Below, one piece after another: positions 37,530 through 55,826 of a stretch of 64,000 nt of DNA. The stretch comes from Gammaproteobacteria bacterium (lineage in GTDB: Bacteria; Pseudomonadota; Gammaproteobacteria; VBWC01): the NCBI GenBank assembly GCA_006218035.1, contig VBWC01000008.1, positions 44,323 through 108,322 on the forward strand. The letters are read 5' to 3'. A program made the position numbers and the translations under genes. Positions within the stretch are counted from its first letter, which is position 1; every line of letters begins with the position of its first letter. The notes under the pieces were generated by a model. The model was given only the letters and a program-made list of their open reading frames with translations, was not told where the DNA came from and did not search any database.

Positions 37530-39023
37530 GTGGTGAGCAGCGAAATTTCTGCAAGACTCGAAAATACGGCAGACCGGGCGACGCTTGTCGCCCTGTGTCG
37601 CACCCTGCTGCCCGCTACCGCGATACTCCATGAAGACGACGAGCTGCGGCCCTACGAGTGCGACGGCCTATCGGCCTATCGCGAAAAGCCGCTGATCGTC
37701 TGCCTGCCGGAGAATCTCGATCAACTGTGCTCGCTGGTCAAGCTGTGCTACGACCGCCAGGTACCGGTGGTCGCGCGCGGCGCCGGCACCGGTCTGTCCG
37801 GCGGCGCGTTGCCACTGCGCGACGGCATGTTGATCAGCCTGGCACGCTTCAACAACATAGTCGATATCGATGTAGCCAATCGCGTCGCACGGGTTGAACC
37901 GGGCGTACGTAATCTGGCGATCTCCGAGGCCGTTGCGCCACATGGACTTTACTACGCGCCGGACCCGTCATCACAGATCGCCTGTTCGATCGGCGGCAAC
38001 GTCGCCGAGAACGCCGGCGGCGTGCATTGCCTGAAGTACGGGTTAACGGTGCACAACGTGCTCGGGCTGAAACTGCTGACGATGGAAGGCGAACTGCTGA
38101 CGATCGGCGGCGCGCGGCTCGACAACCCCGGCTATGACCTGCTCGCGCTGCTGAATGGCTCCGAAGGACTGCTCGGTATCATTGTCGAGGTCACCGTCAA
38201 ACTGCTGCCGATACCGGAGCGCGCCCAGGTGGTGCTGGCCGCCTTCGACGATGTCGAAAAGGCCGGCGCCGCGGTCAGCCGGATCATTGCGGCGGGTATT
38301 GTCCCCGCCGGGCTGGAGATGATGGACCGGCTCGCGATCCGTGCCGCTGAAGACCATGTGCATGCCGGTTATCCGACCGATGCGGCGGCGATACTGCTGT
38401 GCGAACTCGATGGTGATAACGCCGAGGTGTCCGAATATATCCTGCGTGTTCACGCCTTGCTGGAGGAGTGCGGCGCGGTCGAAATCCGCACGGCGGTCGA
38501 TGAGGCCGAGCGCAAACGCTTGTGGGCGGGCCGCAAGGCGGCGTTCGCCGCGATCGGCCGGCTGGCGCCGGATTATTACTGCATGGACGGCACGATCCCG
38601 CGGCACCGCCTGCCGGAGGTGCTGAAACAGATATCGCAGTGGTCAGAGGAGTACGGCCTGCCAGTCGCGAATGTATTTCATGCCGGCGATGGCAATCTCC
38701 ATCCGCTGATTCTTTACGACGCCAACCGGCCCGGCGAACTGGCGCGCACCGAGGAATTCGGCGGCCGTGTCCTGGAACTCTGCATCGCGGCGGGCGGCAC
38801 CATCACCGGCGAGCACGGCGTCGGCATGGAGAAGATCAATCAGATGTGCCTGCAGTTCACCACCGCCGAGCTGGAACAGTTTCATGCGATCAAATACGCG
38901 TTCGATCCGCACGGCCTGCTGAATCCCGGCAAGGCGGTACCGACGCTCGCGCGCTGCGCGGAGTTCGGTGCGATGCACGTACACCGCGGTCAACTGCCGT
39001 TCCCCGATATCGAGCGCTTCTGA
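37530..39023 (+). CDS. glcD: Glycolate oxidase subunit GlcD (FAD-linked)
   Basis: PVVARGAGTGLSGGALPLRDGMLISLARFNNIVDID; FHAGDGNLHPLILYD; GGTITGEHGVGMEKI. Confidence 0.95.
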   Translation: MVSSEISARLENTADRATLVALCRTLLPATAILHEDDELRPYECDGLSAYREKPLIVCLPENLDQLCSLVKLCYDRQVPVVARGAGTGLSGGALPLRDGMLISLARFNNIVDIDVANRVARVEPGVRNLAISEAVAPHGLYYAPDPSSQIACSIGGNVAENAGGVHCLKYGLTVHNVLGLKLLTMEGELLTIGGARLDNPGYDLLALLNGSEGLLGIIVEVTVKLLPIPERAQVVLAAFDDVEKAGAAVSRIIAAGIVPAGLEMMDRLAIRAAEDHVHAGYPTDAAAILLCELDGDNAEVSEYILRVHALLEECGAVEIRTAVDEAERKRLWAGRKAAFAAIGRLAPDYYCMDGTIPRHRLPEVLKQISQWSEEYGLPVANVFHAGDGNLHPLILYDANRPGELARTEEFGGRVLELCIAAGGTITGEHGVGMEKINQMCLQFTTAELEQFHAIKYAFDPHGLLNPGKAVPTLARCAEFGAMHVHRGQLPFPDIERF

Positions 39024-39025
39024 TC

Positions 39026-39111
39026 CGGAGAGGCTCTGATTAATTTCTTGCCCGTCATTCCCGCGCATGCCCGGGTGAAAACAGGGGAATGACGACACAT
39101 CGAAAGCTTCC
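39026..39111. mobile_element. Short MITE-like inverted-repeat element, related to 8429-8562
   Basis: aggctctgattaa at left, gaaagcttcct at right, inner gtcattcccgcg / ggggaatgac arms. Confidence 0.45.
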
Positions 39112-41165
39112 TAACGCAACAGCGTAAAAATTCCGTCGGCTGCCTTGCGGGAATCGATCAGCTGGACGAGATCATCGCGTCGCAGGCGTTGCGCTACACG
39201 GCGCGCGTACTCGCCCTTGGCATTCTTGATATCCGGTTTTGCCCCGGCGGCCAGCAACTTTTCTGTAACCGCGGCATGACCACCGCTGACCGCAAGCAAC
39301 AGCGCTGTATCGCCATGGCGGTTTTGTTGATCGACTCCGGCACTGGCGACGATCAACTCCTGCGCTATTTCCGCGCTGCCGCCGCTGGCGGCCATCATCA
39401 GCGGCGTGTTGCCATCGCGGCTCGGGGCGTTGGCCGATGCGCCGGCGCGCAACAATGCGTCGACCATGTCGCCCGACCCGGACTGCACCGCGCGCAGCAG
39501 AGGCGTACGCCCTTCGTTGTCGGCGACATCCGGCAGCGCCCCGGCATTCAATAGCGCCGCAACGATATCCGCGCGGCCATGATCAACGGCGAACCATAAC
39601 GCGCTACGGCCATGCTGATCGACGGCATTCACGGCGGCACCGCGCGCGACCAGCCGGGCGACCATGTCAGTCGTCGCATACCGGGCGCCCAGCATCAGCA
39701 TGGTCGAGCCCTCGCGGTCGGCCGTATTGACATCTGCTCCGGCTTGCACCAACGCAATCGCCGCCGCGTCATGTCCGTTCGTCATGGCCAGTGCCAACGC
39801 CGTCGCACCGTCGGCCACCGCACCGGTGGCAGCACCGCCACTGATGAGTCGCTCGACGGCTTTTGCATGCCCGTGCTCCGCGGCCAGCATCAGCGCGGTC
39901 TTGCCATCCGCCAGCGCAGCGTCCGCCAGCGCAGCGTCCGCCTGCGCACCGGCCCGCAACAGCATATCGACGATGACGTCATGACCACGCATCGCCGTGC
40001 GAGCCAGTGCCGTGTAGCCCTCGTTATCGCGAACATCCACCGCGACATTTCTTTCTTTCAGAAGGCCAGCCACGATTTCCTGCTGTCCCAGCCATGCCGC
40101 AACCATCAACGGCGTCCAGCCAGCGTACGGGTTACGCGCGTCATCCGGCTCGGGACCCGCGTTTCCGGTCATCGCGGCCCGTGGTCGCTGCGCCGCCTCC
40201 GGCCGCTGCGCACCGGCTGCCAGCAGCAATCGCGTTACCGTTTCGTGATTCCGGATGCTCGCAATTTCCAGCGCCGTCCAGCCCGTGTTGTTCGTGGCAT
40301 CAATGGTCGCTTTACGGTCAAGCAGTATTTGGGTCAGCGCGGCGTCGCCGCGTGCGGCCACGAGCAGCAGCGGCGTATTGCCATTCTCGTCACGTTCGTT
40401 GACGTCGGTCCCGGCAGCGAGTAACGCCTGGACGATCTCGACATGTGCGTCCTTGACCGCCAGCAACAGCGCCGTATCGCCGATGCCATCGCGCAGACCG
40501 GTTCGCGCGCTGTGTTCCAGAAGCAACCGCGCAATCGGCAGGTAACCGGCCGCCACCGCCTCCATCAGTGCCGTCCGGCCATACTTGTCCTGCGCGTCGA
40601 CATTGACACTGCCACGAAGCAACTCGCTGACGCCTGCGGCATCGTTGTCACGCACGGCCCAGCGCAGCTTTTCTTCTGCCGGCGCGTCACCGGCCACCGC
40701 CCAACGGCTCGGTGGCGCCTGCGCAGTTCCAGCTGCTTCGTCCGAGGCTGTTTTCGCGAGCGCCAGCGCATGCCCCTGTATCGCAGCCAGGCGATACCAG
40801 CGCAACGCCTGCACGGCGTCGACTGGCGTCCCCCAGCCATTCTCATACATCGTCCCCAGGTTGTACTGCGCCTTGGCATGTCCTTGCGCTGCCGCCTTCG
40901 TCAGCAGTGCGAAAGCGGCATCATGATTCTTGGCAACGCCCTGCCCGGCACGATAAAGCGCGGCCAGCTGATATTGCGCCTCGGCATCGCCCCGCTCCGC
41001 CAGCGGCTGCAACAACCGCGCGACGTTGTCATAGTCGCGAACGCGCGCGGATGCGCGAACCTCATTCATCACATCGTCAATCGAATCGGCACGGATTTCG
41101 GACGAGGCCATAGTTATGGCAAGCACCACGATCGCCAACGCACTGCAACTCTTACGCGGTGCCAT
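39111..41165 (-). CDS. Exported Sel1-repeat plus multi-ankyrin-repeat protein
   Basis: Signal peptide MAPRKSCSALAIVVLAITMASSEIRA; Sel1 (AAAQGHAKAQYNLGTMYENGWGTPVDAVQALRWYRLAA); more than ten ankyrin units. Confidence 0.88.
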   Translation of the reverse strand: MAPRKSCSALAIVVLAITMASSEIRADSIDDVMNEVRASARVRDYDNVARLLQPLAERGDAEAQYQLAALYRAGQGVAKNHDAAFALLTKAAAQGHAKAQYNLGTMYENGWGTPVDAVQALRWYRLAAIQGHALALAKTASDEAAGTAQAPPSRWAVAGDAPAEEKLRWAVRDNDAAGVSELLRGSVNVDAQDKYGRTALMEAVAAGYLPIARLLLEHSARTGLRDGIGDTALLLAVKDAHVEIVQALLAAGTDVNERDENGNTPLLLVAARGDAALTQILLDRKATIDATNNTGWTALEIASIRNHETVTRLLLAAGAQRPEAAQRPRAAMTGNAGPEPDDARNPYAGWTPLMVAAWLGQQEIVAGLLKERNVAVDVRDNEGYTALARTAMRGHDVIVDMLLRAGAQADAALADAALADGKTALMLAAEHGHAKAVERLISGGAATGAVADGATALALAMTNGHDAAAIALVQAGADVNTADREGSTMLMLGARYATTDMVARLVARGAAVNAVDQHGRSALWFAVDHGRADIVAALLNAGALPDVADNEGRTPLLRAVQSGSGDMVDALLRAGASANAPSRDGNTPLMMAASGGSAEIAQELIVASAGVDQQNRHGDTALLLAVSGGHAAVTEKLLAAGAKPDIKNAKGEYARRVAQRLRRDDLVQLIDSRKAADGIFTLLR

Positions 41166-42462
41166 ATTTCGTCTCGACCTGAATACCAAGCTTCTGTAAA
41201 AAAGATGTCGGCAGAATTCCGCCGGCGCAAATAATAACGGCGTCGTTGGGTAGTGCGAACACGCGCCCGTCGTGCTCGATACGCACGTCTGCGGGATTGA
41301 TCTGCTGGATTGTTGATTGCAGCAGGACAGTCATACGCCCTTCCTGCGCTGCCTGCTCGATACGCTGCCGGTTCTTCTCTTTTGCGCGGGAAAACGCCGC
41401 CGATCGATACGACAGCGTGACCGTTGTCCCCGGCTGGCCGGCAAGACTCAGTGCGGCTTCCAGCGCGCTGTCCCCGCCACCGACGACGAGCACGTGCAGG
41501 CCACGGTACTGTTCGGGATCAATCAGCCGGTACACCACCTTCGGCAACTGCTCGCCAGCCACCTCCAAGGGGCGCGGCGTGCCTCGCCTGCCGATCGCGA
41601 GCAGGACCGCCCGGGTGTGATAAGAATCCTTCGTTGTCCTGACGACAAACCCGTCACCGGACGCCTCGACGCCGTCGACGCGCTCGTGATAACGAATCTT
41701 CAACCCGGTCTGCCGCTCGATGCCCTGCCAAAAAGCGAGCAAGGCCTCTTTGCTGGTCTCGATCAGTTTCACCTTGCCGATTATCGGTAGCTCGACCGGC
41801 GCAGTCATGACGATCTTGCCGCGCGGATAATGCGCCACGGTACCGCCCAGCGAGCCCTGCTCGAGGTTCGCATAACGCAGGCCCAATTGCATCGCCGCGA
41901 GCGACGCCGCAATGCCCGCCGGTCCGGCGCCGACGATGACGACGTCCAGCCGATCGCCTTTACCGATACCGGCGAGTTTTGCTATCGACGTTATCGCCTG
42001 ACGACCCTGCTCGATCGCGTTGCGAATCAACCCCATGCCGCCCAGCTCACCGGCGATGAAGATTCCCGGCACATTGGTCTCGAAATTATGCTTGACCAAG
42101 GGAATATCGACACCGCGCGCCTCGCTACCGAATACCAGCGTGATGGCCCCCTCGGGACAGGCCTCGCGGCAGGCGCCGTGCCCGATGCACGAGGCCGGAT
42201 TGATCAACTCTGCCTTGCGGCTAATGACACCTAGCACACGGTCCTCCGGGCAGGCGCTCACGCAGGACCCGCAACCGATGCACAGCAACGGATCGACCAC
42301 CGGATGTAGCGATGCGGGTTCCATGAGCCCGGCAATGCGCGCGTTGTCACGCGCAGCAATATTCTTTCGCTGCCGGCGGGTCCGCACGTAAAAATACGCG
42401 GCCCATATAAGCAGCAACGGGACAAAGTAGACGAGATATTCAAGATCCTGTAACGCCGACAT
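41152..42462 (-). CDS. Membrane-anchored 2x[4Fe-4S] ferredoxin / FAD-NAD(P) disulfide-oxidoreductase-like protein
   Basis: N-term TM LEYLVYFVPLLLIWAAYFYV; CIGCGSCVSACPEDRV and CIGHGACREACPEGAI; FAD VVIVGAGPAGIAASLAA; NAD(P) VLVVGGGDSALEAALSLA. Confidence 0.88.
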   Translation of the reverse strand: MSALQDLEYLVYFVPLLLIWAAYFYVRTRRQRKNIAARDNARIAGLMEPASLHPVVDPLLCIGCGSCVSACPEDRVLGVISRKAELINPASCIGHGACREACPEGAITLVFGSEARGVDIPLVKHNFETNVPGIFIAGELGGMGLIRNAIEQGRQAITSIAKLAGIGKGDRLDVVIVGAGPAGIAASLAAMQLGLRYANLEQGSLGGTVAHYPRGKIVMTAPVELPIIGKVKLIETSKEALLAFWQGIERQTGLKIRYHERVDGVEASGDGFVVRTTKDSYHTRAVLLAIGRRGTPRPLEVAGEQLPKVVYRLIDPEQYRGLHVLVVGGGDSALEAALSLAGQPGTTVTLSYRSAAFSRAKEKNRQRIEQAAQEGRMTVLLQSTIQQINPADVRIEHDGRVFALPNDAVIICAGGILPTSFLQKLGIQVETKYGTA

Positions 42463-42704: not shown

Positions 42705-43658
42705 GTGAGTAGTTCGCATCGTCGTGTTGTACAAAATAGCGAATTATCTGTCGGAATGGCAACGTCGTCCGGGACCATAGTCGGGGAAGAGGCTGGCCAT
42801 GCCTCGTCGACCCGACCCCCGATCGCTTCGCGCCTTGGTGTGTTGCTGTTCTCTATCGGCGTAATGCTGGCGATTTACACCGGCTGGCAGAACCGGACCA
42901 CCAGCCTGATGACCGCCGAGTCCGGCGCCGGATATGCGCTGGGTATTCTGGGCTCGGTATTGATGCTGGTATTACTGCTGTATCCGCTGCGCAAGCGCGC
43001 GCGGTTCATGCGCAACCTCGGGCCGATCAAGTACTGGTTCCGCACCCATATGATCCTCGGTGTCGTCGGGCCCGTGTGCGTGCTGTTTCATGCCAGCTTC
43101 CAGTGGGGATCACTGAACAGCAACGTCGCCCTGGTCTGCATGCTGCTCGTTGCCGGTAGCGGACTTATCGGACGCTATATATACACGCGTATTCATTTTG
43201 GACTGTACGGCAGCAAGGCATCACTGCCCGTGCTGACGCAGCATGCCATGGAGACATGGGAACGGTTGGCTGCCAGCACGGATCTGCCGCCAGAACTCAC
43301 GCAGCGGCTGCAACGTCTTGAACAGGCCGCGCTGATCCCGCTGCGCGGCCTGCTACACGGCGCTGCCCGCGCAGCCGGATTCGGCATCGCCGTACCGTGG
43401 CATGAACTTCGCGCGCGTCTTGCCCTGCGACGGCATCTGCAACATGGCGCTGCCGCCGTACTCGACCGGCAACGAAAGAAACAACTGTACCGGCACACCG
43501 GACGCTATGTATCGGACTATATCGCCACTATTCGCAAGATAGCGGTCCTGGGTTTCTACGAACGCCTGTTTGCGCTGTGGCACGTGCTGCATATGCCACT
43601 GTTCCTGATGATGCTGATCACCGGTATCGTTCACGTTGTCTTTGTCCACATGTACTGA
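42705..43658 (+). CDS. Multi-TM membrane protein, b-type cytochrome / ferric-reductase-like
   Basis: About 6 TM helices with spaced His (FRTHMILGVVGPVCVLFHASF; LWHVLHMPLFLMMLITGIVHVVFVHMY). Confidence 0.65.
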   Translation: MSSSHRRVVQNSELSVGMATSSGTIVGEEAGHASSTRPPIASRLGVLLFSIGVMLAIYTGWQNRTTSLMTAESGAGYALGILGSVLMLVLLLYPLRKRARFMRNLGPIKYWFRTHMILGVVGPVCVLFHASFQWGSLNSNVALVCMLLVAGSGLIGRYIYTRIHFGLYGSKASLPVLTQHAMETWERLAASTDLPPELTQRLQRLEQAALIPLRGLLHGAARAAGFGIAVPWHELRARLALRRHLQHGAAAVLDRQRKKQLYRHTGRYVSDYIATIRKIAVLGFYERLFALWHVLHMPLFLMMLITGIVHVVFVHMY

Positions 43659-43675
43659 CCGGAGCCAGAGACGGC

Positions 43676-45241
43676 ATGATCAGAACTCTGGCCAGATTAC
43701 TTGTTTGCGTGTACGCGATGCTGCCGGGTACCGGCAGTCCTGTGCTGGCCGCCAATATCGAAACACTGATGATGCCGGGCCCGCTGATCACGGGGCATGC
43801 GAAATACGAAAACGAGTGTCAGAAATGCCACAAGCCGTTCAGCAAGGCACGTCAGAATGATCTCTGCCTGGATTGTCATGACAAGGTTGCGGCCGACATC
43901 AAGAAGCTCGCCGGCCACCACGGCCGGATCAAGGACATCGGCGAGCTTGAGTGCAAGCAGTGCCATACGGACCACAAAGGCCGGGACCACGACATCGTCC
44001 AGTTCAACCGCGAGACGTTCGACCATGACATGACGGACCTCGCGCTGACCGGCGGTCATCGCACCGTCCGCTGCGCGGCCTGTCATAAGAGCGACACACG
44101 GTATCGCGACGCGCCGACGGATTGTTACAGCTGCCATAAAGACAACGACCCGCATCGGGGAAAACTTGGCAAGGATTGCAAATCCTGTCATGACACCACC
44201 CGCTGGGCAAAGGTCGCATTCGATCACGACAAGACCGATTTTCCGTTGAAGGGCGAGCACAAGCGAACGGCGTGCCAGGGCTGTCACCTGAACGAGCGTT
44301 ACAAGGATGTGGCAACGGCCTGCGTCGCCTGTCATCGTCTGGCAGACGTCCACGGCGGACGATACGGCGAGAAATGCGGCGACTGCCACACAGCGGCGGA
44401 CTGGAAAAAATTCGCCTTCGACCACGACACAACCGACTTTGTGCTGCGCGGCCGGCACGGGAAGATTGCCTGCAGCGTCTGTCATATCAAAACACTCTAC
44501 AAAGACAAGCTCGGCGAGACCTGCATTGACTGTCACAAAAACGATGACGACCACAAGGGTACCTACGGCAAGAAATGCCAGAGCTGCCACCGCGAGGACA
44601 CCTGGACCCGCATCGCGTTCGATCACGACAAGGACACCGACTTTCGCCTGACCGGAAAACATCGCAAGGTCGCCTGCCGCGACTGCCACATGGGCGATAT
44701 CTATGACGAGAAAACCGCGACGCAGTGCATCGCCTGTCACAAAAAGAATGACGTGCACAACGGCCAGCAGGGCAAGCAGTGCGGCCGTTGCCATAACGAC
44801 GAAGGCTGGGGCAGGAAAATCGTGTTCGATCACGACCTGACCGGAATGCCGCTGATCGGCCTGCACGCGCTGGCACCCTGCGAAGAATGCCACCTGACCG
44901 CCGGTTTCAAGGACACCAAATCCGACTGCATCGCCTGTCATCGCGCCGACGACAAACACAAACTGCGACTCGGACCCGGCTGCGGCCTGTGCCATAACCC
45001 GAATGGCTGGGCGCTGTGGCGTTTTGATCACGACACGCAAACCGACTACAAGCTCGACGGCGCGCACAAGGGCCTCGATTGCCATGTGTGCCACGCCACA
45101 CCCGCCGTCAAGGACGTGCGCGTAACGCAGTCATGCGGCATCTGCCACCGGCCGGACGACGTCCATGACGGACGTTTCGGTCAGTACTGCGAGCGCTGTC
45201 ACGTCACGGAATCGTTCAAAAAAATAAAATCATTACGATGA
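43676..45241 (+). CDS. 21-heme c-type cytochrome
   Basis: Signal peptide; 21 CXXCH motifs counted; six repeats of FDHD..TDF.L.G.H each followed by three CXXCH. Confidence 0.93.
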   Translation: MIRTLARLLVCVYAMLPGTGSPVLAANIETLMMPGPLITGHAKYENECQKCHKPFSKARQNDLCLDCHDKVAADIKKLAGHHGRIKDIGELECKQCHTDHKGRDHDIVQFNRETFDHDMTDLALTGGHRTVRCAACHKSDTRYRDAPTDCYSCHKDNDPHRGKLGKDCKSCHDTTRWAKVAFDHDKTDFPLKGEHKRTACQGCHLNERYKDVATACVACHRLADVHGGRYGEKCGDCHTAADWKKFAFDHDTTDFVLRGRHGKIACSVCHIKTLYKDKLGETCIDCHKNDDDHKGTYGKKCQSCHREDTWTRIAFDHDKDTDFRLTGKHRKVACRDCHMGDIYDEKTATQCIACHKKNDVHNGQQGKQCGRCHNDEGWGRKIVFDHDLTGMPLIGLHALAPCEECHLTAGFKDTKSDCIACHRADDKHKLRLGPGCGLCHNPNGWALWRFDHDTQTDYKLDGAHKGLDCHVCHATPAVKDVRVTQSCGICHRPDDVHDGRFGQYCERCHVTESFKKIKSLR

Positions 45242-46887
45242 TGACCAAACGGAATCGCTGCCCTATGAGCCCTACAAACCCGCCATCACACCCTGTCCTC
45301 TGCAGGATCGCCGCATGCGTCATGGCCGTACTCGCAATGACGCTGGCGACGCCCGCGCAGGCGGCACCGGACTCCGGCAGGGAATTCGATCACTTTGCGA
45401 CCGGTTTTCCGCTCAGCGGCGGCCACGCCCGCGTCGACTGCGAAAGCTGCCATGTGCGCGGCGTATTCAAGGGCACGCCGCTGCGCTGTAGCGCCTGCCA
45501 CGTGCAGTCCGGTTACGTCAACGCATCGATCAAGCCCCGCAACCATATTCCAAGCACCGATGACTGCGAGGACTGCCACAGCGAAGCGAACTGGCGCTTC
45601 GTCAGCCGGGTCGATCACCTTGCCGTACGCGGCAGCTGCGCCAGTTGTCACAATGGCTCGGTCGCCTCAGGAAAACCCCCGCAGCATATCGCCAGCGGCA
45701 ACAACTGTGACGATTGCCATACGACGGGCTCATGGGCGTCGGCGGTGTTCGATCATGCGACAGTGACCGCCGCGTGCGTCAGCTGTCATAACGGTGGAAC
45801 CGCAACAGGCAAGTCGCCAACCCATATACAGACCACCAATGTCTGCGGGGACTGTCACGCAACCCGCGGCTGGACGCCGGTCTTGCGTGTCGATCACCTG
45901 GCGGTCACCGGCGCCTGCTTCAGCTGTCACAACGGCGTCGCCGCTACCGGTAAACACAGCCGCCATATCACGAGCAGTAATAACTGCGGCGATTGCCACA
46001 CGACCCGCAGCTGGGACGCAGCCGTATATGACCACAGCAACATCGCCGGCAACTGTGCGAGCTGCCATAACGGCTCTACCGCGACCGGTAAATCATCCGG
46101 CCACATCCAGAGCACCAATGTCTGCGAAGACTGCCATTCCACAGGCCGGTGGACACCGGCGCTGCGTGTCGACCACCTTGCGGTCATCGGCACCTGCTAC
46201 AGCTGCCACAACGGCGTTATTGCCACCGGCAAACACCCCGGACATCTGACCAGCAGCAACAGTTGTGGCGACTGCCACTCGACCAACGCGTGGACACCGG
46301 CGGTGTTCGACCACATCGGCGTCACCGGCAACTGTGCCAGCTGCCATAATGGCAGCACGGCGACCGGAAAATCTGCCAGCCATATTGCGACCTCGGGCGG
46401 CTGCGAGCTCTGCCATACCACGGTGGCATGGACACCGACGCATTTCGATCACAACGCGGTCAGCGGGTCATGCTCCAGCTGCCACAACGGCAGCGCCGCA
46501 ACCGGCAAGGGTGCCGGCCACTTCGTCACGAGCCTGCAGTGCGATACCTGTCACTCGACAAGCAACTGGACGACACTGAGATTCACGCACAGCTCACCGG
46601 ATTATCCGGGCGATCACCGCGGCAACCTGGCGTGCACCGCATGCCATACCGCTAATTCCCCGGTCGTTAACTGGACCAGCGCCGCGTACAAGCCGAATTG
46701 CGCCGGATGCCATGCAAACCGCTACATCAGCGACCCGCACAAGAAACACGAGAATCCCGACGTAAAGTATACGGTCTCGGAACTGCGCGACTGTTCGGGC
46801 AGCTGCCATATCTATTCGAACAGTTCCCTGACCACGATCACGACGACACGCAACAGCAGACACAGGGTCAACGATGGAGGCTTCTAA
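45238..46887 (+). CDS. Multiheme c-type cytochrome with 19 CXXCH plus one CX3CH
   Basis: Signal peptide; repeats C.SCHNG..ATGK..HI...N.C.DCH.T..W......DH; terminal CSGSCH; ATGA overlap with upstream gene. Confidence 0.92.
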   Translation: MMTKRNRCPMSPTNPPSHPVLCRIAACVMAVLAMTLATPAQAAPDSGREFDHFATGFPLSGGHARVDCESCHVRGVFKGTPLRCSACHVQSGYVNASIKPRNHIPSTDDCEDCHSEANWRFVSRVDHLAVRGSCASCHNGSVASGKPPQHIASGNNCDDCHTTGSWASAVFDHATVTAACVSCHNGGTATGKSPTHIQTTNVCGDCHATRGWTPVLRVDHLAVTGACFSCHNGVAATGKHSRHITSSNNCGDCHTTRSWDAAVYDHSNIAGNCASCHNGSTATGKSSGHIQSTNVCEDCHSTGRWTPALRVDHLAVIGTCYSCHNGVIATGKHPGHLTSSNSCGDCHSTNAWTPAVFDHIGVTGNCASCHNGSTATGKSASHIATSGGCELCHTTVAWTPTHFDHNAVSGSCSSCHNGSAATGKGAGHFVTSLQCDTCHSTSNWTTLRFTHSSPDYPGDHRGNLACTACHTANSPVVNWTSAAYKPNCAGCHANRYISDPHKKHENPDVKYTVSELRDCSGSCHIYSNSSLTTITTTRNSRHRVNDGGF

Positions 46888-46918
46888 CAACGTGATCGCA
46901 AACATACGACGTTCTTCG

Positions 46919-47419
46919 ATGAAGGCGTTGGCGTTGGTCGCTGCGATGGCCGGGCCGTGGTCCGTAGCGCACGCCGCACCATTGGCAACCCGCATGATCG
47001 ACGGCATGACCCTGACAACCGAAGGTCACTGCAACGTGATTACGCTGGCCTTTCTGTTGCCGCTGCAATATATCCGGCATTTCCCCGACAGTTACGGCGA
47101 CGAACTACTGGTACGTGTCGAGCCACTCGAGACGGGCCGCGTGGACAACGATGCACTATCCGCCCGCGAGGCGGTCCGTCCGCAACCGCCAGTCGATACG
47201 CCGCTGGTAATGGCGATCTACGAAGGCGATATCGCCGACGGTCCCTACGTACGTTTTCAGTTCGAACACGCGGTGAATTTCAGCGTATCCCAAGGCACTG
47301 ACTTTCGCAGCCTGATCGTGACCGTCGCCGACACCGGTCAGGACGGCGGTGCACCGGCCTGCGGCAGCGAGCCGCCTCCGTTACCACAACCGCTATCCGT
47401 CTTATATGAGGAGCAATAA
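46919..47419 (+). CDS. Small exported protein of unknown function
   Basis: MKALALVAAMAGPWSVAHAAPLATRMIDGM... signal peptide; open frame continuous with ORF 46874..47419; sits between MHC and barrel genes. Confidence 0.65.
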   Translation: MKALALVAAMAGPWSVAHAAPLATRMIDGMTLTTEGHCNVITLAFLLPLQYIRHFPDSYGDELLVRVEPLETGRVDNDALSAREAVRPQPPVDTPLVMAIYEGDIADGPYVRFQFEHAVNFSVSQGTDFRSLIVTVADTGQDGGAPACGSEPPPLPQPLSVLYEEQ

Positions 47420-47480
47420 TGCGGCTCTCCCGACCCATTTACCGACCACGCCGGCGAACTCAACCGGCGGCCGCAACAAG

Positions 47481-49214
47481 ATGACTTCTCCTGGCGTTTG
47501 CCGTTTGGCCACCCGCTGGCTGCTGGCCCTGCTGGTGTTGTGCATGCTGCACGCAACGCCCGTTCAGGCAGCGGACGAGGCGCAACCACTGCCGGCGCTT
47601 ACCGCGGAGCGCCAGGCCGAACTGATGGAACAGGCACGCCAGGCGATGGCGACACAAAAGTATGATGATGCGATTCGCCTCTATACCCGGCTGACCGAGG
47701 AACCCGCACCGGAGATTCGCCAGCAGGCGCTGGAGTTTCTCGGCGTCGCCCGCGAGCGTAACGGGCAGGTCGCGCACGCCAAGGCACTGTACGAGGACTA
47801 TCTGCAACGTTACCCAAAAGGCGACGGTGCAAAACGCGTCAGCCAGCGCCTCGCCGGTCTCACGACCGCGCGTGAAGAACCGCCGGATGAGTTGCGGCGC
47901 GGCAAATCCCGGGACGCGCTCGCCCATTGGGACTCCCACGCGGGTATCTCGCAGTACTACCGGCGCGATGTCAGCTCCACAGACGCCGGCGGCGATACCG
48001 TTGACCGCTCGTCACTCGATACCGGCATCGATGTCACCTCGCGTCTGCGCGGCGCGGACTTCGATCTCGGCGCGCGCTTCTCGGGCAGCAACGAATACGA
48101 TTTTCTCACCACCGGCGACCATCAGACACGCATCAGCTCGCTGTATATCGACGGTGCGACGCCCGAACGCTGGCTATCTGCCCGGCTGGGACGCCAGACC
48201 AGTACCCGCGGCGGCGTACTCGGTCGCTTCGACGGCCTGTTCGCGGGCTATCAACTGACCCCGGCCAGCCGGCTCAACATCGTCACGGGATTTCCGGTCG
48301 AATCCTCAACGGCGACGTCGGTCGATACCGCGCGGCCGTTTTACGGCCTGAATGTCGATCTGGGCGCGCCGGGCAGCGCATGGGAGTTCAATGTATACAC
48401 AATTGAGCAACGCGTCGGCGCGATCACCGACCGCCAGGCCGTCGGCGGGGAGATGCGTTACTTTCAGGCCAACCGCTCAATGTTCGCCATGCTCGACTAC
48501 GACACGTTGTTCAACGATGTCGATCTCGCGCTGCTGACCGGCAACTGGCTGCTGCCGGGCAACAGCAATCTCAGCATCGTTGCCGACCATCGTCGGAGCC
48601 CGCTGCTAATGACCAGCAACGCGTTAATCGGCCAGACGGCCACATCCATCGATGAACTGCGACTGAGCAACACCGACGACGCGATTCAGCAACTGGCACA
48701 GGACCGGACCGCCACCAGCGACTCGCTGATGCTCGGCCTGTCACGCCCCGTCAGCGCACGCCTGCAGCTCAGCGGCGATGTCACCGTATCCAGCCTGTCA
48801 GGCACGCCGGCCTCCGGCGGCGTCGCGGCCAACGATGATACCGGCAACGACTATTACTATTCCGTGCAGCTGGTCGGCAACGATCTGCTGAAACAGGGCG
48901 ACACCGCAATCGTCGGCCTGCGTTTTGCCGACACCGACAGCGCCGCGACAACATCGTTGATGCTGAACACGCGCTACCCGCTCGGCAATGCCTGGCGCGT
49001 CAATCCCCGTTTACGCGTCGACTACCGCGAGTTTTCCCTGGCCGCTGGCGACCAGTGGACGGCCGCGCCGTCGATCCGCGTCAACTACCGCTGGCGCAAA
49101 CGTTACTTCTTCGAGATCGAATCCGGCGGCGAGTGGTCGTCCCGGCGCCTGAGCGACACCACCGACAGAACCACGAGCTCCTATCTCAGCCTCGGCTACC
49201 GGGCCGACTTCTAG
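47481..49214 (+). CDS. TPR-domain outer-membrane beta-barrel protein (start uncertain, alternative 47406)
   Basis: Signal peptide LLALLVLCMLHATPVQAAD; TPR-like YDDAIRLYTRLTEEPAPEIRQQALEFLGVARERNGQVAHAKALYEDYLQRYP; alternating beta-strand pattern ending YLSLGYRADF. Confidence 0.75.
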   Translation: MTSPGVCRLATRWLLALLVLCMLHATPVQAADEAQPLPALTAERQAELMEQARQAMATQKYDDAIRLYTRLTEEPAPEIRQQALEFLGVARERNGQVAHAKALYEDYLQRYPKGDGAKRVSQRLAGLTTAREEPPDELRRGKSRDALAHWDSHAGISQYYRRDVSSTDAGGDTVDRSSLDTGIDVTSRLRGADFDLGARFSGSNEYDFLTTGDHQTRISSLYIDGATPERWLSARLGRQTSTRGGVLGRFDGLFAGYQLTPASRLNIVTGFPVESSTATSVDTARPFYGLNVDLGAPGSAWEFNVYTIEQRVGAITDRQAVGGEMRYFQANRSMFAMLDYDTLFNDVDLALLTGNWLLPGNSNLSIVADHRRSPLLMTSNALIGQTATSIDELRLSNTDDAIQQLAQDRTATSDSLMLGLSRPVSARLQLSGDVTVSSLSGTPASGGVAANDDTGNDYYYSVQLVGNDLLKQGDTAIVGLRFADTDSAATTSLMLNTRYPLGNAWRVNPRLRVDYREFSLAAGDQWTAAPSIRVNYRWRKRYFFEIESGGEWSSRRLSDTTDRTTSSYLSLGYRADF

Positions 49215-49320
49215 CCGTATCCACAGGCCTGCAAACCTGCCGCGACGCGTTGTCTTCGCCGCCCCGAATCTCTATAGTGGCGGCAGTCTGGATACTGGCT
49301 GTGACGACCACCGACCGCAG

Positions 49321-50385
49321 ATGAATGCCGATAAAAGTAACGAACTCCGCGACACCGTCCTAGAGGCCGCTAATGCCAAGACTCCGTTGCGCATTCAGGG
49401 CAGCGGCAGCAAGGACTTCATCGGTCAGGCGCCGTCCGGCGAACGCCTGTCGCTGCGCGAACACCGCGGCATCGTCAATTACCAGCCGAACGAACTGGTG
49501 CTGACGGCGCGCGCCGGCACGCGGCTGGCGGACATCGAATCACAAATCGCGCAACACCGGCAGATGCTGCCGTTCGAACCGCCGCACTTTGGTCCCGATG
49601 CGACACTCGGCGGCACCATCGCCTGCGGCCTGTCAGGGCCACGCCGGCCGTACGCCGGCAGTGCCCGCGACTTCGTGCTCGGCGTGCGGATGATCAACGG
49701 CAAGGGCGAGATACTGCGCTTCGGCGGCGAGGTCATGAAAAACGTCGCCGGTTTCGACGCGTCACGACTGATGGTCGGCGCGATGGGCACGCTCGGCGTA
49801 CTGCTGGATATCTCGATGAAGGTCCTGCCACGACCCGAGACCGAGGCAACACTGGTATTCGAACTGGGCGCAGCGGCGGCGATCGACCGGATGACGCAGT
49901 GGTCGGGTAAACCGCTGCCGATCAGCGCCGCATGCCACGACGGACAACGACTGCATCTGCGGCTATCGGGCGCGGCGTCCGGCGTCAATGCCGCGCGACA
50001 GCGCCTTGGCGGCGAAACGCTGAACAGCGCCGACGCGTTCTGGCGCAGCGTGCGCGAGCTGAGCCATCCGTTCTTCGACGATGACGCACCGTTGTGGCGT
50101 TACTCGCTGCCGCCGGCCACGGCGGCGCTGACCTTCAGCAAGCACTGGTTTATCGACTGGGGTGGTGCGCAGCGCTGGGTGAAAACCGTATTGCCCGCCA
50201 ACATCGTGCGCGAAACCGCCGCGCGCGCCGGCGGTCACGCCACGCTGTTTTACAGCGTCAGGCGCGAAAGCACGTTCTTCCACCCGCTGACGCCAGCGGC
50301 ATTGACACTGCACAAGCGCCTCAAGGCGGCGTTCGATCCGCACGGTATACTCAATCCCGGCAGGCTTTACCGTGATATCGGATAA
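49321..50385 (+). CDS. glcE: Glycolate oxidase subunit GlcE (FAD-binding)
   Basis: PLRIQGSGSKDFIG; FGPDATLGGTIACGLSGPRRPYAGSARDFVLGVRMINGKGE; C-term FDPHGILNPGRLY. Confidence 0.93.
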   Translation: MNADKSNELRDTVLEAANAKTPLRIQGSGSKDFIGQAPSGERLSLREHRGIVNYQPNELVLTARAGTRLADIESQIAQHRQMLPFEPPHFGPDATLGGTIACGLSGPRRPYAGSARDFVLGVRMINGKGEILRFGGEVMKNVAGFDASRLMVGAMGTLGVLLDISMKVLPRPETEATLVFELGAAAAIDRMTQWSGKPLPISAACHDGQRLHLRLSGAASGVNAARQRLGGETLNSADAFWRSVRELSHPFFDDDAPLWRYSLPPATAALTFSKHWFIDWGGAQRWVKTVLPANIVRETAARAGGHATLFYSVRRESTFFHPLTPAALTLHKRLKAAFDPHGILNPGRLYRDIG

Positions 50386-50414
50386 CGATACCGGCATCGA
50401 TATCAGACGACCCA

Positions 50415-50930
50415 ATGACCTTGAGAAAGAGCTTCGATTACAGCGCCCGCGCCGACGCGCAGGTGTTGATACTCGGCTCAATGCCGGGCGAGGAATCGCT
50501 GCGCCGGCAGCAGTACTATGCCCATCCACGCAACTGCTTCTGGGACATCATGTCGGCATTGTTCGGCATCAACCGCGAGCTGCCTTACCCTCAACGTCTG
50601 GCGAAACTGCAGCAACAGCGGATCGCGTTATGGGACGTCGCCCGCTCGTGCCGGCGCCGCGGCAGCCTGGATGCGAGCATCGCCATGCCATCCGTGCAGG
50701 CGAACGACTTCGCGGCGCTGTTCAAGCACTGTCCCGGTATCACGCACGTGTTCTTCAATGGGCGCAAGGCCGCCGAGCTGTTCAACAAACTGGTGAAGCA
50801 TTCTGTTGCGGACCTGGCGCACGCGGTGGTATTTACCGCGTTACCCTCGACCAGTCCGGCCAACGCATCGATATCGAACGCCGAAAAACTTGCGCAATGG
50901 CGGGCGGTAAAAAAGGCGCTGATACGATGA
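50415..50930 (+). CDS. DNA-deoxyinosine/uracil glycosylase (UDG family 6-like)
   Basis: LILGSMPGEESLRRQQYYAHPRNCFWDIMSALFG; VFTALPSTSPANAS. Confidence 0.88.
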   Translation: MTLRKSFDYSARADAQVLILGSMPGEESLRRQQYYAHPRNCFWDIMSALFGINRELPYPQRLAKLQQQRIALWDVARSCRRRGSLDASIAMPSVQANDFAALFKHCPGITHVFFNGRKAAELFNKLVKHSVADLAHAVVFTALPSTSPANASISNAEKLAQWRAVKKALIR

Positions 50931-51940
50931 CCATGCGTGGCCGTATGTCACGCGCGCTGACCGCCGCGTTGCTCGCGCTCGGATTGATCGTTCCGGCGCA
51001 TGCGCGCGCCGAGGTCGCGCCATTCTATACGCGCAACCTGAGTCCGTTCATCCAGATCTTCGGCCTGCCGGCGATGGAAAGCGGCGCGCTGGCACCGGCC
51101 GGCAGTATCGATACGAAACTGGCGCTGGATATTGCCAACAATTCGATACAGGGCGGCAACGACCTTGAACAGGTGGTAATCGATGGTGAAACGTATCGCG
51201 CGGCGCTGACATTGCGCTACCGCGTGAGTCCGGCGATCGAGCTCGGCCTCGATGTGCCGCTGGTGCATCACAGCGGCGGGATATTCGATAGTTTCATCGA
51301 TGGCTGGCACGATACCTTCGGCCTGTCCAACAACGCCAGACGCCAGTTCGAAAACAGCACGCTGAATTACCGTTACACCCGCGACGGTATCCAGCGCGTC
51401 GCGATCACGCAGGCCGACAACGGCATCGGTGACCTGCGGCTGTCGACCGGCTACCGGATACTCCAGGACAATGGTCCGCTGCCGCGCGCGATCGCGCTGC
51501 GTGCCGGACTGAAACTGCCAACCGGCGACCCGGACCTGCTGCTCGGCAGCGGCGGTACCGATCTGTCGCTCAGCATCAACTTCAGCGACAGCCAGCTGCT
51601 CGGCTCTGCGGACTGGACCTTGTTCGGCGCGGCCGGGATTGTCGCACTCGGCAACGGCGACGTGCTGCCGGAACTGCATCGTAACGCCGCCGGTTTCGGC
51701 GTGCTCGGTGTCGGCTGGCACGCCTGGCGCATGGTCAATCTGAAGACGCAGCTCAATACCCATACCGCGATGTATCGCAGCGATCTCGCCGAACTCGGTT
51801 CGGATGCCATTGAGTTGATCGTCGGCGGCGATATTGCATTGCCGCACCGCATGACCCTCGACATCGGCGTGACCGAAAACCTGTTCTCGGGTCCAACCCC
51901 GGACGTGGCGCTGCATTTGCTGCTGAGGCGCGCGTACTAG
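50927..51940 (+). CDS. DUF3187-like outer membrane protein
   Basis: Signal peptide; APFYTRNLSPFIQIFGLPAMESGALAPAGSIDTKLALDIANNS...FDSFIDGWHDTFGLSNNAR; ATGA overlap with upstream gene. Confidence 0.75.
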   Translation: MTMRGRMSRALTAALLALGLIVPAHARAEVAPFYTRNLSPFIQIFGLPAMESGALAPAGSIDTKLALDIANNSIQGGNDLEQVVIDGETYRAALTLRYRVSPAIELGLDVPLVHHSGGIFDSFIDGWHDTFGLSNNARRQFENSTLNYRYTRDGIQRVAITQADNGIGDLRLSTGYRILQDNGPLPRAIALRAGLKLPTGDPDLLLGSGGTDLSLSINFSDSQLLGSADWTLFGAAGIVALGNGDVLPELHRNAAGFGVLGVGWHAWRMVNLKTQLNTHTAMYRSDLAELGSDAIELIVGGDIALPHRMTLDIGVTENLFSGPTPDVALHLLLRRAY

Positions 51941-52011
51941 CCGTGCAGACGCGCGTCGCCCGACCGGTCCGAACAAGTAAATCCGCATCGACCTGTGTAA
52001 ACTACGCGCCC

Positions 52012-52893
52012 ATGTTATGGTTGACGATCCTCCTGTCCCTGGCGATACTCCCTGCGATCGTGTCAGCGGCGATACCCGGTCCCGGCGCCACAGGGACAAC
52101 GGCCACGGTAACGACGCTCGCGAGCGCGGCCGACGATGCGCCGTCCGCTGCCGGACAGTCACCCCTGGCTACGGACTTCCGCCCCGCCAGCGCGGTGCTC
52201 GGCCTGACCGGACAGCAACAACCCGACCAGCGCGACTGGGCCGGCATGCGCAAGGACACCGCTTATTTCGCGGCCTACCAGTTCATCGTCATCGGCGTGC
52301 TGTACGTCGTACCGGAAAGCATCTCCGGCTGGACCCCGCAGCAGAAGGAAAACTTCAGCATCGGCAAATGGAAGGATCATATCCGTCACGTGGTCTGGGA
52401 TCACGACGAGTGGTACATCAATTACATCCTGCATCCGTACTGGGGCGCCGCGTATTACGTGCGCGCACAGCAGCGCGGCTTCGGCCCGGCCGGCTCGTTC
52501 TGGTATTCGGCCATGCTGTCGACGATCTATGAATTCGGCGCCGAAGCGATATTCGAGAGGCCGTCGATCCAGGACATGATCTTCACGCCGGTCGGCGGAG
52601 CGTTTGTCGGCGATTACTTCATGACACTGCGCGGCGAGATCCAGGCACGCACGCAGGCGAGCGGCAAGACCAGCGGCATGGACAGTTTCCTGCTGGTCGC
52701 CACCGACCCGCTCGGCGCGTTGAACAACAATGTCGACCGCCTGTTCGGCAAGAACGCCAGCGTCACCGTGCTGCCGGTGTTCGGCCCGACGATCGTGCCG
52801 ACGACGACGCACAACCCGGCGCTCGGTGATAGCGCCCAGTCGTTTTCACTCAGCGCGCCGATGCTCGGCGTGAAAACCACGATCCGCTGGTAA
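52012..52893 (+). CDS. DUF3943-like protein
   Basis: WDHDEWYINYILHPYWGAAYYVRAQQRGFGPAGSFWYSAMLSTIYEFGAEAIFERPSIQDMIFTPVGGAFVGDYF. Confidence 0.75.
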   Translation: MLWLTILLSLAILPAIVSAAIPGPGATGTTATVTTLASAADDAPSAAGQSPLATDFRPASAVLGLTGQQQPDQRDWAGMRKDTAYFAAYQFIVIGVLYVVPESISGWTPQQKENFSIGKWKDHIRHVVWDHDEWYINYILHPYWGAAYYVRAQQRGFGPAGSFWYSAMLSTIYEFGAEAIFERPSIQDMIFTPVGGAFVGDYFMTLRGEIQARTQASGKTSGMDSFLLVATDPLGALNNNVDRLFGKNASVTVLPVFGPTIVPTTTHNPALGDSAQSFSLSAPMLGVKTTIRW

Positions 52894-53196
52894 GCCCTGC
52901 CGCGCCGTCACGTCGATACGGCAGTCCGGTGTCGGATTCAGCGGACAGGAAAACAGATGGCTTTCTTCCTTCCGTTCGATTGCGTAGTCCTGCGTCACAC
53001 CGGGGGCTAGCCCGCCGCGCACCTTCGCGGGAATGGCGGACTTGACACGGATTCCCAAGGTCGCGTCACAGCGCAGGACCGGAACACCCGGCCCCGGTCT
53101 GATCAGCGGTCGCCGCAACAGGTGATTACGTTACCCGCCGCCGGGTATGCTATCGTTGCGTTTGTCAGTTCCGGACACCGATCATTACATCGAACC

Positions 53197-54411
53197 ATGC
53201 AAACCGCGCTCGCTGAACCGTACAAATCCACCCCGGCAGGACAGGAAGCAGACGCGATACTACGCAGTTGCGTGCATTGTGGCTTCTGCAACGCCACCTG
53301 TCCGACCTACCAGTTGCTCGGCGACGAACTCGACGGCCCGCGCGGTCGTATCTACCAGATCAAACAACTGGTCGAGGGTGCGCCGGCGACGGAGCGCATA
53401 CGGCTGCATCTCGACCGCTGCCTGACCTGCCGCAATTGCGAAACCACCTGCCCGTCGGGCGTGCAGTACGGAAATTTGCTCGATATCGGCCGCGACATCG
53501 TCGAGGCCCAGGTGCCGCGTCCATGGCGCGAGCGCACCTTCCGGCGACTGCTTCGGTTCGTGCTGCCGTATCCGCGCCGGCTGCGCCCGGTACTGTGGTT
53601 CGCCGGGATGTTCCGCGCGCTGCTGCCCGCGACGCTACGCGAACAACTGCCGCAGCGGCGCAAGCCGGTGCCATGGCCCGTGTCGGCACAGCAACGCAAG
53701 GTCATCATGCTGGACGGCTGCGTACAGTCGGTATCCGAACCGGGCATCAACGCCGCCGCCGCCCGCGTGTTCGACCGCCTTGGTTACGCCGCGCAGCGCG
53801 CCACCGGCGCGAATTGCTGCGGCGCGGTCAGCTTTCATCTGTCGGCCGCCGACGAGGCGCGCACCTTCATGCGCGCCAACATCGACGCGTGGTGGCCGCT
53901 GATTGCACAAGGCGCGGAGGCTATTATCGTTACGTCGAGCGCCTGCAGCCTGATGGTCAAGGATTACGGCCGGCTGCTTAAGGATGACGCCGCCTATGCA
54001 GGGAAGGCCGCGCGCGTATCCGAACTGTGCTGCGATATCGCCGAGTTCATTGCCCGCGCCGACCTCTCCCGGCTAAACGCGGTCCAGCCGCAGCAGATCG
54101 CGTTTCACGCGCCGTGCACGTTGCAGCACGGCAGCAAATTGCCGGGCATCGTCGAACAGATACTCGGCTCGCTGGGCTTTACGCTGACACCGGTCAAGGA
54201 TGCCCATCTGTGCTGCGGCGCTGCCGGCACCTACAGCATCCTGCAACCGGCGCTGTCAAAGCAGTTGCTCGTCAACAAGGTCGCCGCGCTCGAAAACGGC
54301 GCGCCCGCGCTTATCGCGACCGCGAACATCGGTTGCCTGCTGCATCTGCAAGGCGGCAGCCGCCGGCCGGTGAAGCACTGGATAGAGCTGCTGGATAACG
54401 CGCACCACTAA
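53197..54411 (+). CDS. glcF: Glycolate oxidase iron-sulfur subunit GlcF
   Basis: CVHCGFCNATCPTYQLLGDELDGPRGRIYQIKQL; CLTCRNCETTCPSGVQYG; two CCG (cysteine-rich) domains. Confidence 0.95.
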   Translation: MQTALAEPYKSTPAGQEADAILRSCVHCGFCNATCPTYQLLGDELDGPRGRIYQIKQLVEGAPATERIRLHLDRCLTCRNCETTCPSGVQYGNLLDIGRDIVEAQVPRPWRERTFRRLLRFVLPYPRRLRPVLWFAGMFRALLPATLREQLPQRRKPVPWPVSAQQRKVIMLDGCVQSVSEPGINAAAARVFDRLGYAAQRATGANCCGAVSFHLSAADEARTFMRANIDAWWPLIAQGAEAIIVTSSACSLMVKDYGRLLKDDAAYAGKAARVSELCCDIAEFIARADLSRLNAVQPQQIAFHAPCTLQHGSKLPGIVEQILGSLGFTLTPVKDAHLCCGAAGTYSILQPALSKQLLVNKVAALENGAPALIATANIGCLLHLQGGSRRPVKHWIELLDNAHH

Positions 54412-54647
54412 CGTTATCCCCCACGCGCCGCGGGGTGACAGCGAGGCGAATATTTTTTATGCTTGGCGGCCGTTTGTGCGGGTGAGCCAAGCGCGGAACC
54501 TTCGCCATCATCGTCGTTCCGGCCTTGAGCCGGAATCCAGTCATATGAAAATGATTTCTGGATTCTCGCCTGCGCGGGAATGACAATAGCGAACCGAATC
54601 TATAAGACCGTTGTACCATCACCGATCAATCGCAACCGAGGTTTACC

Positions 54648-55826
54648 ATGCCGATACGTTCGTTTCATCCGCCGCAGCGCACGCTGATGGGGCCGGGCCC
54701 TTCCGATGTCAGTCCGCGCGTGCTTGAGGCCATGTCACGACCGACCATCGGCCACCTCGATCCGCGCTTCATCGAGATGATGGATGAGATCAAACAGCTG
54801 TTGCAGTACACGTTCCAGACCAAAAACGAACTGACGATGCCGGTCTCCGGCCCCGGTTCCGCCGGCATGGAAACCTGCTTCGTCAATCTGGTGCAGCCCG
54901 GCGACACCGTCGTCGTCTGCCAGAACGGCGTGTTCGGCGGCCGCATGAAAGAAAACGTCGAGCGCTGCGGCGCAACCGCAATCATGGTCGAAAACGCCTG
55001 GGGCGAGGCCGTCGATCCGGGCAGACTCGAAGACGCGCTGAAAAAGAATGGCGCGGCGAAGCTGGTGGCGTTCGTGCATGCCGAGACGTCGACCGGCGCG
55101 CAGTCGGATGCGAAAGCGCTGGTCGACATCGCGCACCGGCATGATTGTCTGACGATAGTGGACGCGGTCACATCGCTCGGCGGCACGCCATTGAAGGTCG
55201 ACGACTGGGGCATCGACGCGGTCTACTCCGGCAGCCAGAAGTGCCTGTCGTGCACGCCCGGCCTGTCGCCGGTCAGCTTCGGCACACGCGCGCTGGACGT
55301 GATCAAAAACCGCAAGCACAAGGTGCAGAGCTGGTTCATGGACCTGAATCTGGTGATGGCCTACTGGGGCAGCGGCGCCAAGCGGGCCTACCATCACACC
55401 GCGCCGATCAATGCACTGTACGGTTTGCACGAGGCACTGGTGATCCTGCAGGATGAGGGCCTGGAAAGCGCGTGGCACCGCCATCAGAGAAACCACGAGG
55501 CGTTGCGCGCCGGTATCGAGGCGATGGGCCTGTCGTTCGTCGTCAAGCCCGAGGCACGTCTGCCACAACTGAACAGCATCAATATACCGGCCGGTATCGA
55601 CGACGCCGCGGTACGCAAGGAACTGCTGACCAGTTATCAGCTGGAAATCGGCGCCGGCCTCGGCGCGATGGCCGGCAAGGTGTGGCGCATCGGCCTGATG
55701 GGCCACACCAGCAACCCGCGCAACGTTTTGCTATGCTTGGGCGCGCTGGACGACGTGTTGAGCCGCGCGGGAGCGCGCATCAACAAGGGCGTGGCAGTCG
55801 CCGCGGCGAGCAAGGTATTGTCATGA
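54648..55826 (+). CDS. Alanine-glyoxylate / serine-glyoxylate aminotransferase (class V)
   Basis: LMGPGPSDVSPRVLEAMSRPTIGHLDPRFIEMMDEIK; VYSGSQKCLSCTPGLSPVSF (PLP Lys). Confidence 0.92.
   Translation: MPIRSFHPPQRTLMGPGPSDVSPRVLEAMSRPTIGHLDPRFIEMMDEIKQLLQYTFQTKNELTMPVSGPGSAGMETCFVNLVQPGDTVVVCQNGVFGGRMKENVERCGATAIMVENAWGEAVDPGRLEDALKKNGAAKLVAFVHAETSTGAQSDAKALVDIAHRHDCLTIVDAVTSLGGTPLKVDDWGIDAVYSGSQKCLSCTPGLSPVSFGTRALDVIKNRKHKVQSWFMDLNLVMAYWGSGAKRAYHHTAPINALYGLHEALVILQDEGLESAWHRHQRNHEALRAGIEAMGLSFVVKPEARLPQLNSINIPAGIDDAAVRKELLTSYQLEIGAGLGAMAGKVWRIGLMGHTSNPRNVLLCLGALDDVLSRAGARINKGVAVAAASKVLS

What the first reader, a model, noticed from the sequence alone, without database searches (positions are those of the whole stretch)
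43676..45241. 21-heme cytochrome built from six tri-heme modules plus an N-terminal tri-heme set
I count 21 CXXCH. The motif FDHD(x)TDFxLxGxH recurs six times (FDHDMTDLALTGGH, FDHDKTDFPLKGEH, FDHDTTDFVLRGRH, FDHDKDTDFRLTGKH, FDHDLTGMPLIGLH, FDHDTQTDYKLDGAH), each followed by three CXXCH: 3 + 6x3 = 21. This suggests growth by tandem module duplication into a heme wire.
Basis: seen in the sequence. Interest (0 to 1): 0.62.

Follow-up and report, generated by a model that had tools for sequence, protein, structure and literature searches.

The report
PCC3 periplasmic heme wire, triheme modules
The gene encodes a 21-heme protein wire, made of one end piece plus six three-heme repeats, that belongs to a known family (PCC3) thought to carry electrons across the space between a bacterium's two membranes; its heme number changes only in steps of three, and its gene cluster travels with a redox enzyme that the PCC3 papers I read do not list.

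Summary
ORF 43676-45241 (521 aa) has 21 CXXCH: three N-terminal plus six ordered modules of 66-72 aa, three each. Each module also carries three extra histidines, enough for bis-His ligation of every heme (231 of 232 modules in 38 proteins). The neighbours identify it as the periplasmic subunit of PCC3, a predicted porin-cytochrome conduit described in 2017: cytochrome b-like inner-membrane protein, 19-heme extracellular cytochrome, 22-strand barrel. The kind is therefore known. The N-terminal triheme set is not detectably a seventh copy. Conduction, wire length and direction are inferred, not shown.

The parts
43676..45241 (+). PCC3 periplasmic multiheme cytochrome (pMHC), 521 aa, 21 CXXCH
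   Evidence: homologues 43-98% identical
43676..43750 (+). predicted Sec signal peptide (residues 1-25)
   Evidence: sequence MIRTLARLLVCVYAMLPGTGSPVLA; inference
43751..44017 (+). N-terminal triheme cap (residues 26-114), invariant non-motif His 41, 82, 100; not demonstrably homologous to the modules
44018..44218 (+). triheme module 1 (FDHDMTDLALTGGH...)
44219..44416 (+). triheme module 2 (FDHDKTDFPLKGEH...)
44417..44617 (+). triheme module 3 (FDHDTTDFVLRGRH...)
44618..44824 (+). triheme module 4 (FDHDKDTDFRLTGKH...)
44825..45022 (+). triheme module 5 (FDHDLTGMPLIGLHALAPCEECH...), the most position-specific module in the family
45023..45238 (+). triheme module 6 (FDHDTQTDYKLDGAH...), C-terminal
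42705..43658 (+). PCC3 inner-membrane protein: two WX3HX13H motifs (residues 111 and 292) and SGLIG (152); predicted di-heme b
   Evidence: motif definition from PMC5566968
45238..46887 (+). PCC3 extracellular multiheme cytochrome (eMHC), 19 CXXCH at about 23 aa per heme
45385..45594 (+). pMHC-type triheme module at the start of the eMHC (FDHFATGFPLSGGH...CESCH...CSACH...H...CEDCH)
   Evidence: found in 107 of 109 eMHC gene starts; His/heme order
46874..47419 (+). conserved small protein (181-aa ORF, real start perhaps 46919), probably exported, no family match; relatives in 46 loci, two tandem copies in several
47481..49214 (+). PCC3 outer-membrane porin: N-terminal TPR-like helices plus 22 predicted beta-strands
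   Evidence: (pLDDT 88)
41152..42462 (-). 4Fe-4S / FAD / NAD(P) flavoprotein with a hydrophobic N-terminus, divergently transcribed; co-inherited with PCC3

Best explanation
The 21-heme protein is the periplasmic subunit (pMHC) of a PCC3 porin-cytochrome electron conduit. Shown: seven triheme units (a distinct N-terminal cap plus six homologous, ordered modules), each heme with a potential second histidine ligand, and a heme number that changes only by whole triheme units; genes for a di-heme-b-like inner-membrane protein, an extracellular multiheme cytochrome, a 22-strand barrel and a co-inherited Fe-S flavoprotein next to it. Inferred: the modules form a chain of low-spin bis-His hemes bridging the periplasm; the N-terminal cap docks on the inner-membrane cytochrome b; the conserved last two modules dock at the porin and meet the matching triheme module that starts the eMHC; module number sets wire length, and 21 hemes fit the usual periplasm. 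In this host (two RuBisCOs, a Uet-like uptake cluster, no MtrB/PioB) electrons probably flow inward from an extracellular donor. The flavoprotein probably exchanges electrons between the inner-membrane heme b and NAD(P) or a cytoplasmic carrier.
For: 21 CXXCH and module boundaries. Three extra His in 231 of 232 modules of 38 proteins; His invariant in the alignment. All PCC3 genes in order with the diagnostic inner-membrane motifs; published periplasmic subunits have 21 (median), 24 and 27 hemes (PMC5566968, PMC10734462). Multiples of three in all complete homologues after resolving the miscounts, at least 10 independent changes on an inner-membrane-protein tree. eMHC starts with the same module. 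Barrel predicted with high confidence. Flavoprotein co-occurrence. Host RuBisCOs, no MtrB/PioB, Uet-like cluster.
Against: No heme has been shown to be attached or bis-His ligated. The AlphaFold model lacks hemes and a confident overall arrangement (pTM 0.32) and matched no solved structure, so linearity and length are not shown here. PCC3 function is untested in the literature read (PMC12442390). Direction of flow is inferred from genome context only.
Confidence: 0.8

Rival explanations
1. It is a c7-type nanowire like Geobacter GSU1996, that is, tandem cytochrome c7 domains.
For: Pfam Cytochrome_C7 matches (E 1.3e-24); best solved sequence match is 3ov0 (GSU1996 by my own knowledge of the entry), E 5.6e-10; both are tandem triheme arrays.
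Against: The best C7 stretch (159-221) runs across a module boundary. The His/heme order differs: here H-H-C-C-H-C per module; in 3ov0 the two His before heme 1 sit three residues apart and no His precedes heme 3 (alignment; c7 order from my own knowledge). NCBIfam's nanowire triheme model does not match this protein.
Confidence: 0.12
2. Electron-storage capacitor: the many hemes hold charge in the periplasm rather than conduct along a fixed path.
For: High heme density, 25 aa per heme; proposed as an option for PCC3 (PMC10734462).
Against: Heme number is nearly fixed at 21 while the outer partner ranges from 5 to 133; a storage role does not predict a near-fixed length or position-specific end modules. 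It does not exclude conduction.
Confidence: 0.15
3. Recent or ongoing tandem duplication generated this protein in this lineage.
For: Tandem homologous modules; L063 modules 3 and 4 are 80% identical in protein.
Against: Window modules are only 38-50% identical and position-orthologous across families; the sister genome has the same six modules at 98% identity.
Confidence: 0.04
4. A multiheme enzyme (reductase) with a catalytic heme rather than a conduit.
For: Multiheme cytochromes include nitrite, tetrathionate and sulfite reductases (general knowledge).
Against: 231 of 232 modules carry the full set of extra His, so there is no obvious open heme site; no enzyme family model over its cut-off.
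Confidence: 0.03

Closest known systems
PCC3 periplasmic MHC (He et al. 2017, PMC5566968; Sideroxydans lithotrophicus ES-1 21 hemes; Amphritea atlantica 21)
   Same: Heme number, cluster gene content, inner-membrane protein with WX3HX13H x2 and SGXXG, porin, extracellular MHC. Amphritea homologues recovered directly, L097 and L102
   Different: Papers read describe repeats and heme counts but not the triheme unit, its His complement, the step-of-three rule, the shared starter module or the flavoprotein; supplements were not readable
Geobacter GSU1996 tandem c7 nanowire (PDB 3ov0)
   Same: Tandem triheme domains; weak sequence match
   Different: Different order of extra His and hemes; no porin-cytochrome cluster known to me
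MtrA/MtoA decaheme (PDB 6r2q)
   Same: Periplasmic partner of a porin in an outer-membrane conduit; weak match E 1.1e-5
   Different: 10 versus 21 hemes; DmsE-family score 29 versus cut-off 192; no MtrB/PioB porin in this genome
PCC4 conduit (He et al. 2017)
   Same: Five-helix di-heme-b-like inner-membrane protein and, in one subgroup, an associated Fe-S gene
   Different: PCC4 has 4, 5 and 10-heme periplasmic proteins and no extracellular MHC

Membership tests
PCC3 | Periplasmic MHC with about 21 hemes and low aa/heme ratio (22-39) | tested here: met
   21 hemes in 521 aa, ratio 25
PCC3 | Extracellular MHC gene in the cluster | tested here: met
   19-heme ORF 45238-46887; extracellular location itself not tested
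PCC3 | Outer-membrane beta-barrel porin gene in the cluster | tested here: met
   22 strands, pLDDT 88; porin-like structural matches
PCC3 | Inner-membrane protein of about 300 aa with two WX3HX13H and one SGXXG | tested here: met
   residues 111, 292, 152
PCC3 | Extracellular electron transfer activity | not testable with these tools
   untested for PCC3 in the literature read
Cytochrome c7 nanowire (GSU1996 type) | c7 His/heme order with module-phase match | tested here: not met
   H-H-C-C-H-C order; Pfam C7 best stretch straddles modules
MtrA/MtoA (DmsE family decaheme) | DmsE-family model over cut-off, ten hemes | tested here: not met
   29.1 bits versus 192.2 cut-off, 21 hemes
MtrAB/MtoAB/PioAB conduit | MtrB/PioB porin | tested here: not met
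   No PF11854 match in the genome

The most novel reading that the evidence does not exclude
PCC3 is not only a quinone-linked conduit but a split NOX/ferric-reductase-like machine: an Fe-S/FAD/NAD(P) flavoprotein on the cytoplasmic face, a di-heme b inner-membrane protein, and a periplasm-spanning heme ruler whose length is set in triheme steps, connecting NAD(P) redox chemistry directly to extracellular donors or acceptors.
Probability: 0.35. Interest if true: 0.75.

Novelty: new member of a known kind. Interest (0 to 1): 0.45.

Why it matters
PCC3 is common in the Gammaproteobacteria sampled here (about 41 of 369 genomes) yet functionally untested. The step-of-three rule and near-fixed 21 hemes make 'module number is a ruler for the periplasm' testable, and a strictly co-inherited flavoprotein gives a concrete candidate for where the electrons enter or leave cytoplasmic metabolism, a gap in current PCC3 models.

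Tried and rejected
N-terminal triheme set as a seventh homologous module: not supported. Foldseek of the pMHC model against PDB: no match. Alignment A1 was too diverse for the genome scan; A2 was used instead. Non-multiples of three were traced to errors: L080 (22) counts a CXXCH upstream of the gene; L068 (23) and L139 (47) were the eMHC picked by mistake, their pMHCs have 21; L058 (18) is a frameshifted 21. DsrA: no match over the cut-off in the host. PHROGs: no match.

Full report
OBSERVATION. The ORF at 43676-45241 on the plus strand encodes 521 aa with 21 CXXCH and no other heme motif; shuffling its residues gives on average 0.28 and at most 3. FDHD stands at residues 115, 182, 248, 315, 384 and 450, each followed by three CXXCH spaced 16-18 and 18 residues, and three CXXCH precede the first FDHD. 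The six modules align to one another at 38-50% identity.

HISTIDINES. Beyond the CXXCH histidines every module has three more in fixed places: in FDHD, in GxH before heme 1, and in DxH between hemes 2 and 3; module 6 has one further His inside its first CXXCH. The order along the chain is H-H-C-C-H-C. In 38 proteins, 231 of 232 modules keep all three; the one miss (L053) is a module my segmentation could not delimit. His 41, 82 and 100 of the N-terminal set are also invariant. This predicts bis-His ligation of all 21 hemes; ligation itself is not shown.

NEIGHBOURS AND IDENTITY. Upstream is a 317-aa inner-membrane protein with two WX3HX13H motifs and SGLIG, the signature given for PCC3 inner-membrane proteins in PMC5566968. 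Downstream are a 19-heme cytochrome, a small protein of no known family, and a protein predicted as TPR-like helices followed by 22 beta-strands at pLDDT 88, with porin-like structural matches. That paper gives 21 as the median heme number of PCC3 periplasmic cytochromes; Gallionellaceae have 21, 24 and 27 (PMC10734462). The protein is therefore a PCC3 periplasmic subunit. The nearest named genome is Gammaproteobacteria MAG nzgw581 (98%).

MODULE NUMBER. I collected the window's gene and 117 loci from two searches (a few contigs were found by both), plus four loci from a phylum-wide sample. The automatic count of 118 complete ORFs gave 21 (106), 24 (6), 18 (2), and one each of 22, 23, 27 and 47. 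The three non-multiples were errors of counting or picking, and one of the 18s is a frameshifted 21. The four extra loci have 24. So every complete pMHC examined is a multiple of three. On a tree of the inner-membrane protein the heme number changes at least 10 times, always between multiples of three; if changes were free, that has a probability of about (1/3)^10. L113 also has a second, 12-heme copy.

AGE AND ORDER. Between 27 proteins with 21 hemes, the best match of a module is the same-numbered module in 3151 of 4212 comparisons (702 expected), most strictly for module 5 (694 of 702) and module 6 (600 of 702). In 24-heme forms the ends keep their identity and the extra module lies in the middle. 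L063 has a middle pair 80% identical in protein and 77% in DNA, a fairly recent whole-module duplication. L096 (27 hemes) appears by eye to have the module 5-6 pair twice (sequence). Growth by module duplication is thus real in the family but old in this protein.

THE EXTRACELLULAR PARTNER. eMHC heme number varies from 5 to 67 among genes complete at both ends (the smallest may be fragments) and reaches 133 in one relative, with no preference modulo three. Of 109 eMHC starts, 107 begin with a pMHC-type triheme module. The rest mostly alternates His and heme, at about 23 aa per heme in the window. Counts are odd in 59 of 67 non-redundant cases (p 1e-10, ignoring relatedness); on the tree there are at least 53 count changes but only 9 parity changes, so it grows mostly by twos. 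The shared starter module suggests the place where the two wires meet; that is inference.

A CO-INHERITED FLAVOPROTEIN. The divergent gene 41152-42462 encodes a hydrophobic N-terminal stretch (weak, peak hydropathy 1.59), two ferredoxin-like motifs (CxxCxxCxxxC, the second with His in place of one Cys), an FAD motif and a GGGDSAxE NAD(P) motif. Among 369 genomes of the class it occurs (E at most 1e-80) in 40 of 41 with a strong match to the PCC3 inner-membrane protein and in 2 without one, of which one is 72% complete (Fisher p 5e-50, ignoring relatedness); the five genomes with two strong inner-membrane proteins have two flavoproteins. In 399 genomes of the phylum the two sets are identical, 6 of 6, four of them new. 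It is sometimes on another contig (G086, G001, G269), so adjacency alone does not explain it. PMC5566968 likens the inner-membrane protein to the ferric reductase/NADPH oxidase domain and proposes a quinone link, without naming this flavoprotein for PCC3. I propose that the two together are a split NOX/ferric-reductase-like unit. It is untested, and I could not read the supplements.

MECHANISM. Shown: architecture, ligand supply, step-of-three rule, cluster, co-inheritance. Inferred: chain of hemes across the periplasm, cap to cytochrome b, last modules to porin, inward direction. The host has two RuBisCO genes, a cluster matching the Uet uptake pathway in gene content (11-heme, two NHL-type proteins, three triheme, a likely porin, isomerase-like and tetraheme genes, read by eye) and no MtrB/PioB, consistent with an autotroph taking up electrons. 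AlphaFold gave locally fair (pLDDT 75) but globally uncertain results (pTM 0.32), and no heme, so I claim no length from it.

VERDICT. A well-observed, typical member of a known but uncharacterised system. What lifts it above routine is the quantised module number and the co-inherited flavoprotein.

Noticed in passing
L072/L073 (G212:C17, about 42976-55236): A relative's PCC3 extracellular cytochrome is one ORF of about 4086 codons with 133 CXXCH; papers read report maxima of 85 (PMC5566968) and 86 (PMC9012536). No runs of N; assembly error in repeats not excluded.
   Followed up: partly
window 41152-42462: Fe-S/FAD/NAD(P) flavoprotein co-inherited with PCC3; the second cluster motif reads CxxHxxCxxxC with the His in a highly conserved CIGHGAC.
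   Followed up: yes
window 46874-47419: Conserved small, probably exported protein between eMHC and porin, no Pfam or NCBIfam match, often two tandem copies in relatives.
   Followed up: partly
L168 (G000:C47:36000-55000): Cluster in the same genome resembling the Uet electron-uptake pathway: 11-heme, NHL-type pair, three triheme, likely porin, isomerase-like, tetraheme genes.
   Followed up: partly
window 37530-39023, 49321-50385, 53122-54411: Probable glycolate oxidase subunits D, E and F (F by NCBIfam, D and E by eye) flank the PCC3 cluster, as if it had been inserted within that locus; a probable aminotransferase follows at 54648.
   Followed up: no
window 39111-41189: Protein with Sel1 and many ankyrin repeats next to the PCC3 cluster.
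   Followed up: no
L113: Second pMHC-like gene with only 12 hemes (also a multiple of three) between a 21-heme pMHC and a 49-heme eMHC.
   Followed up: partly
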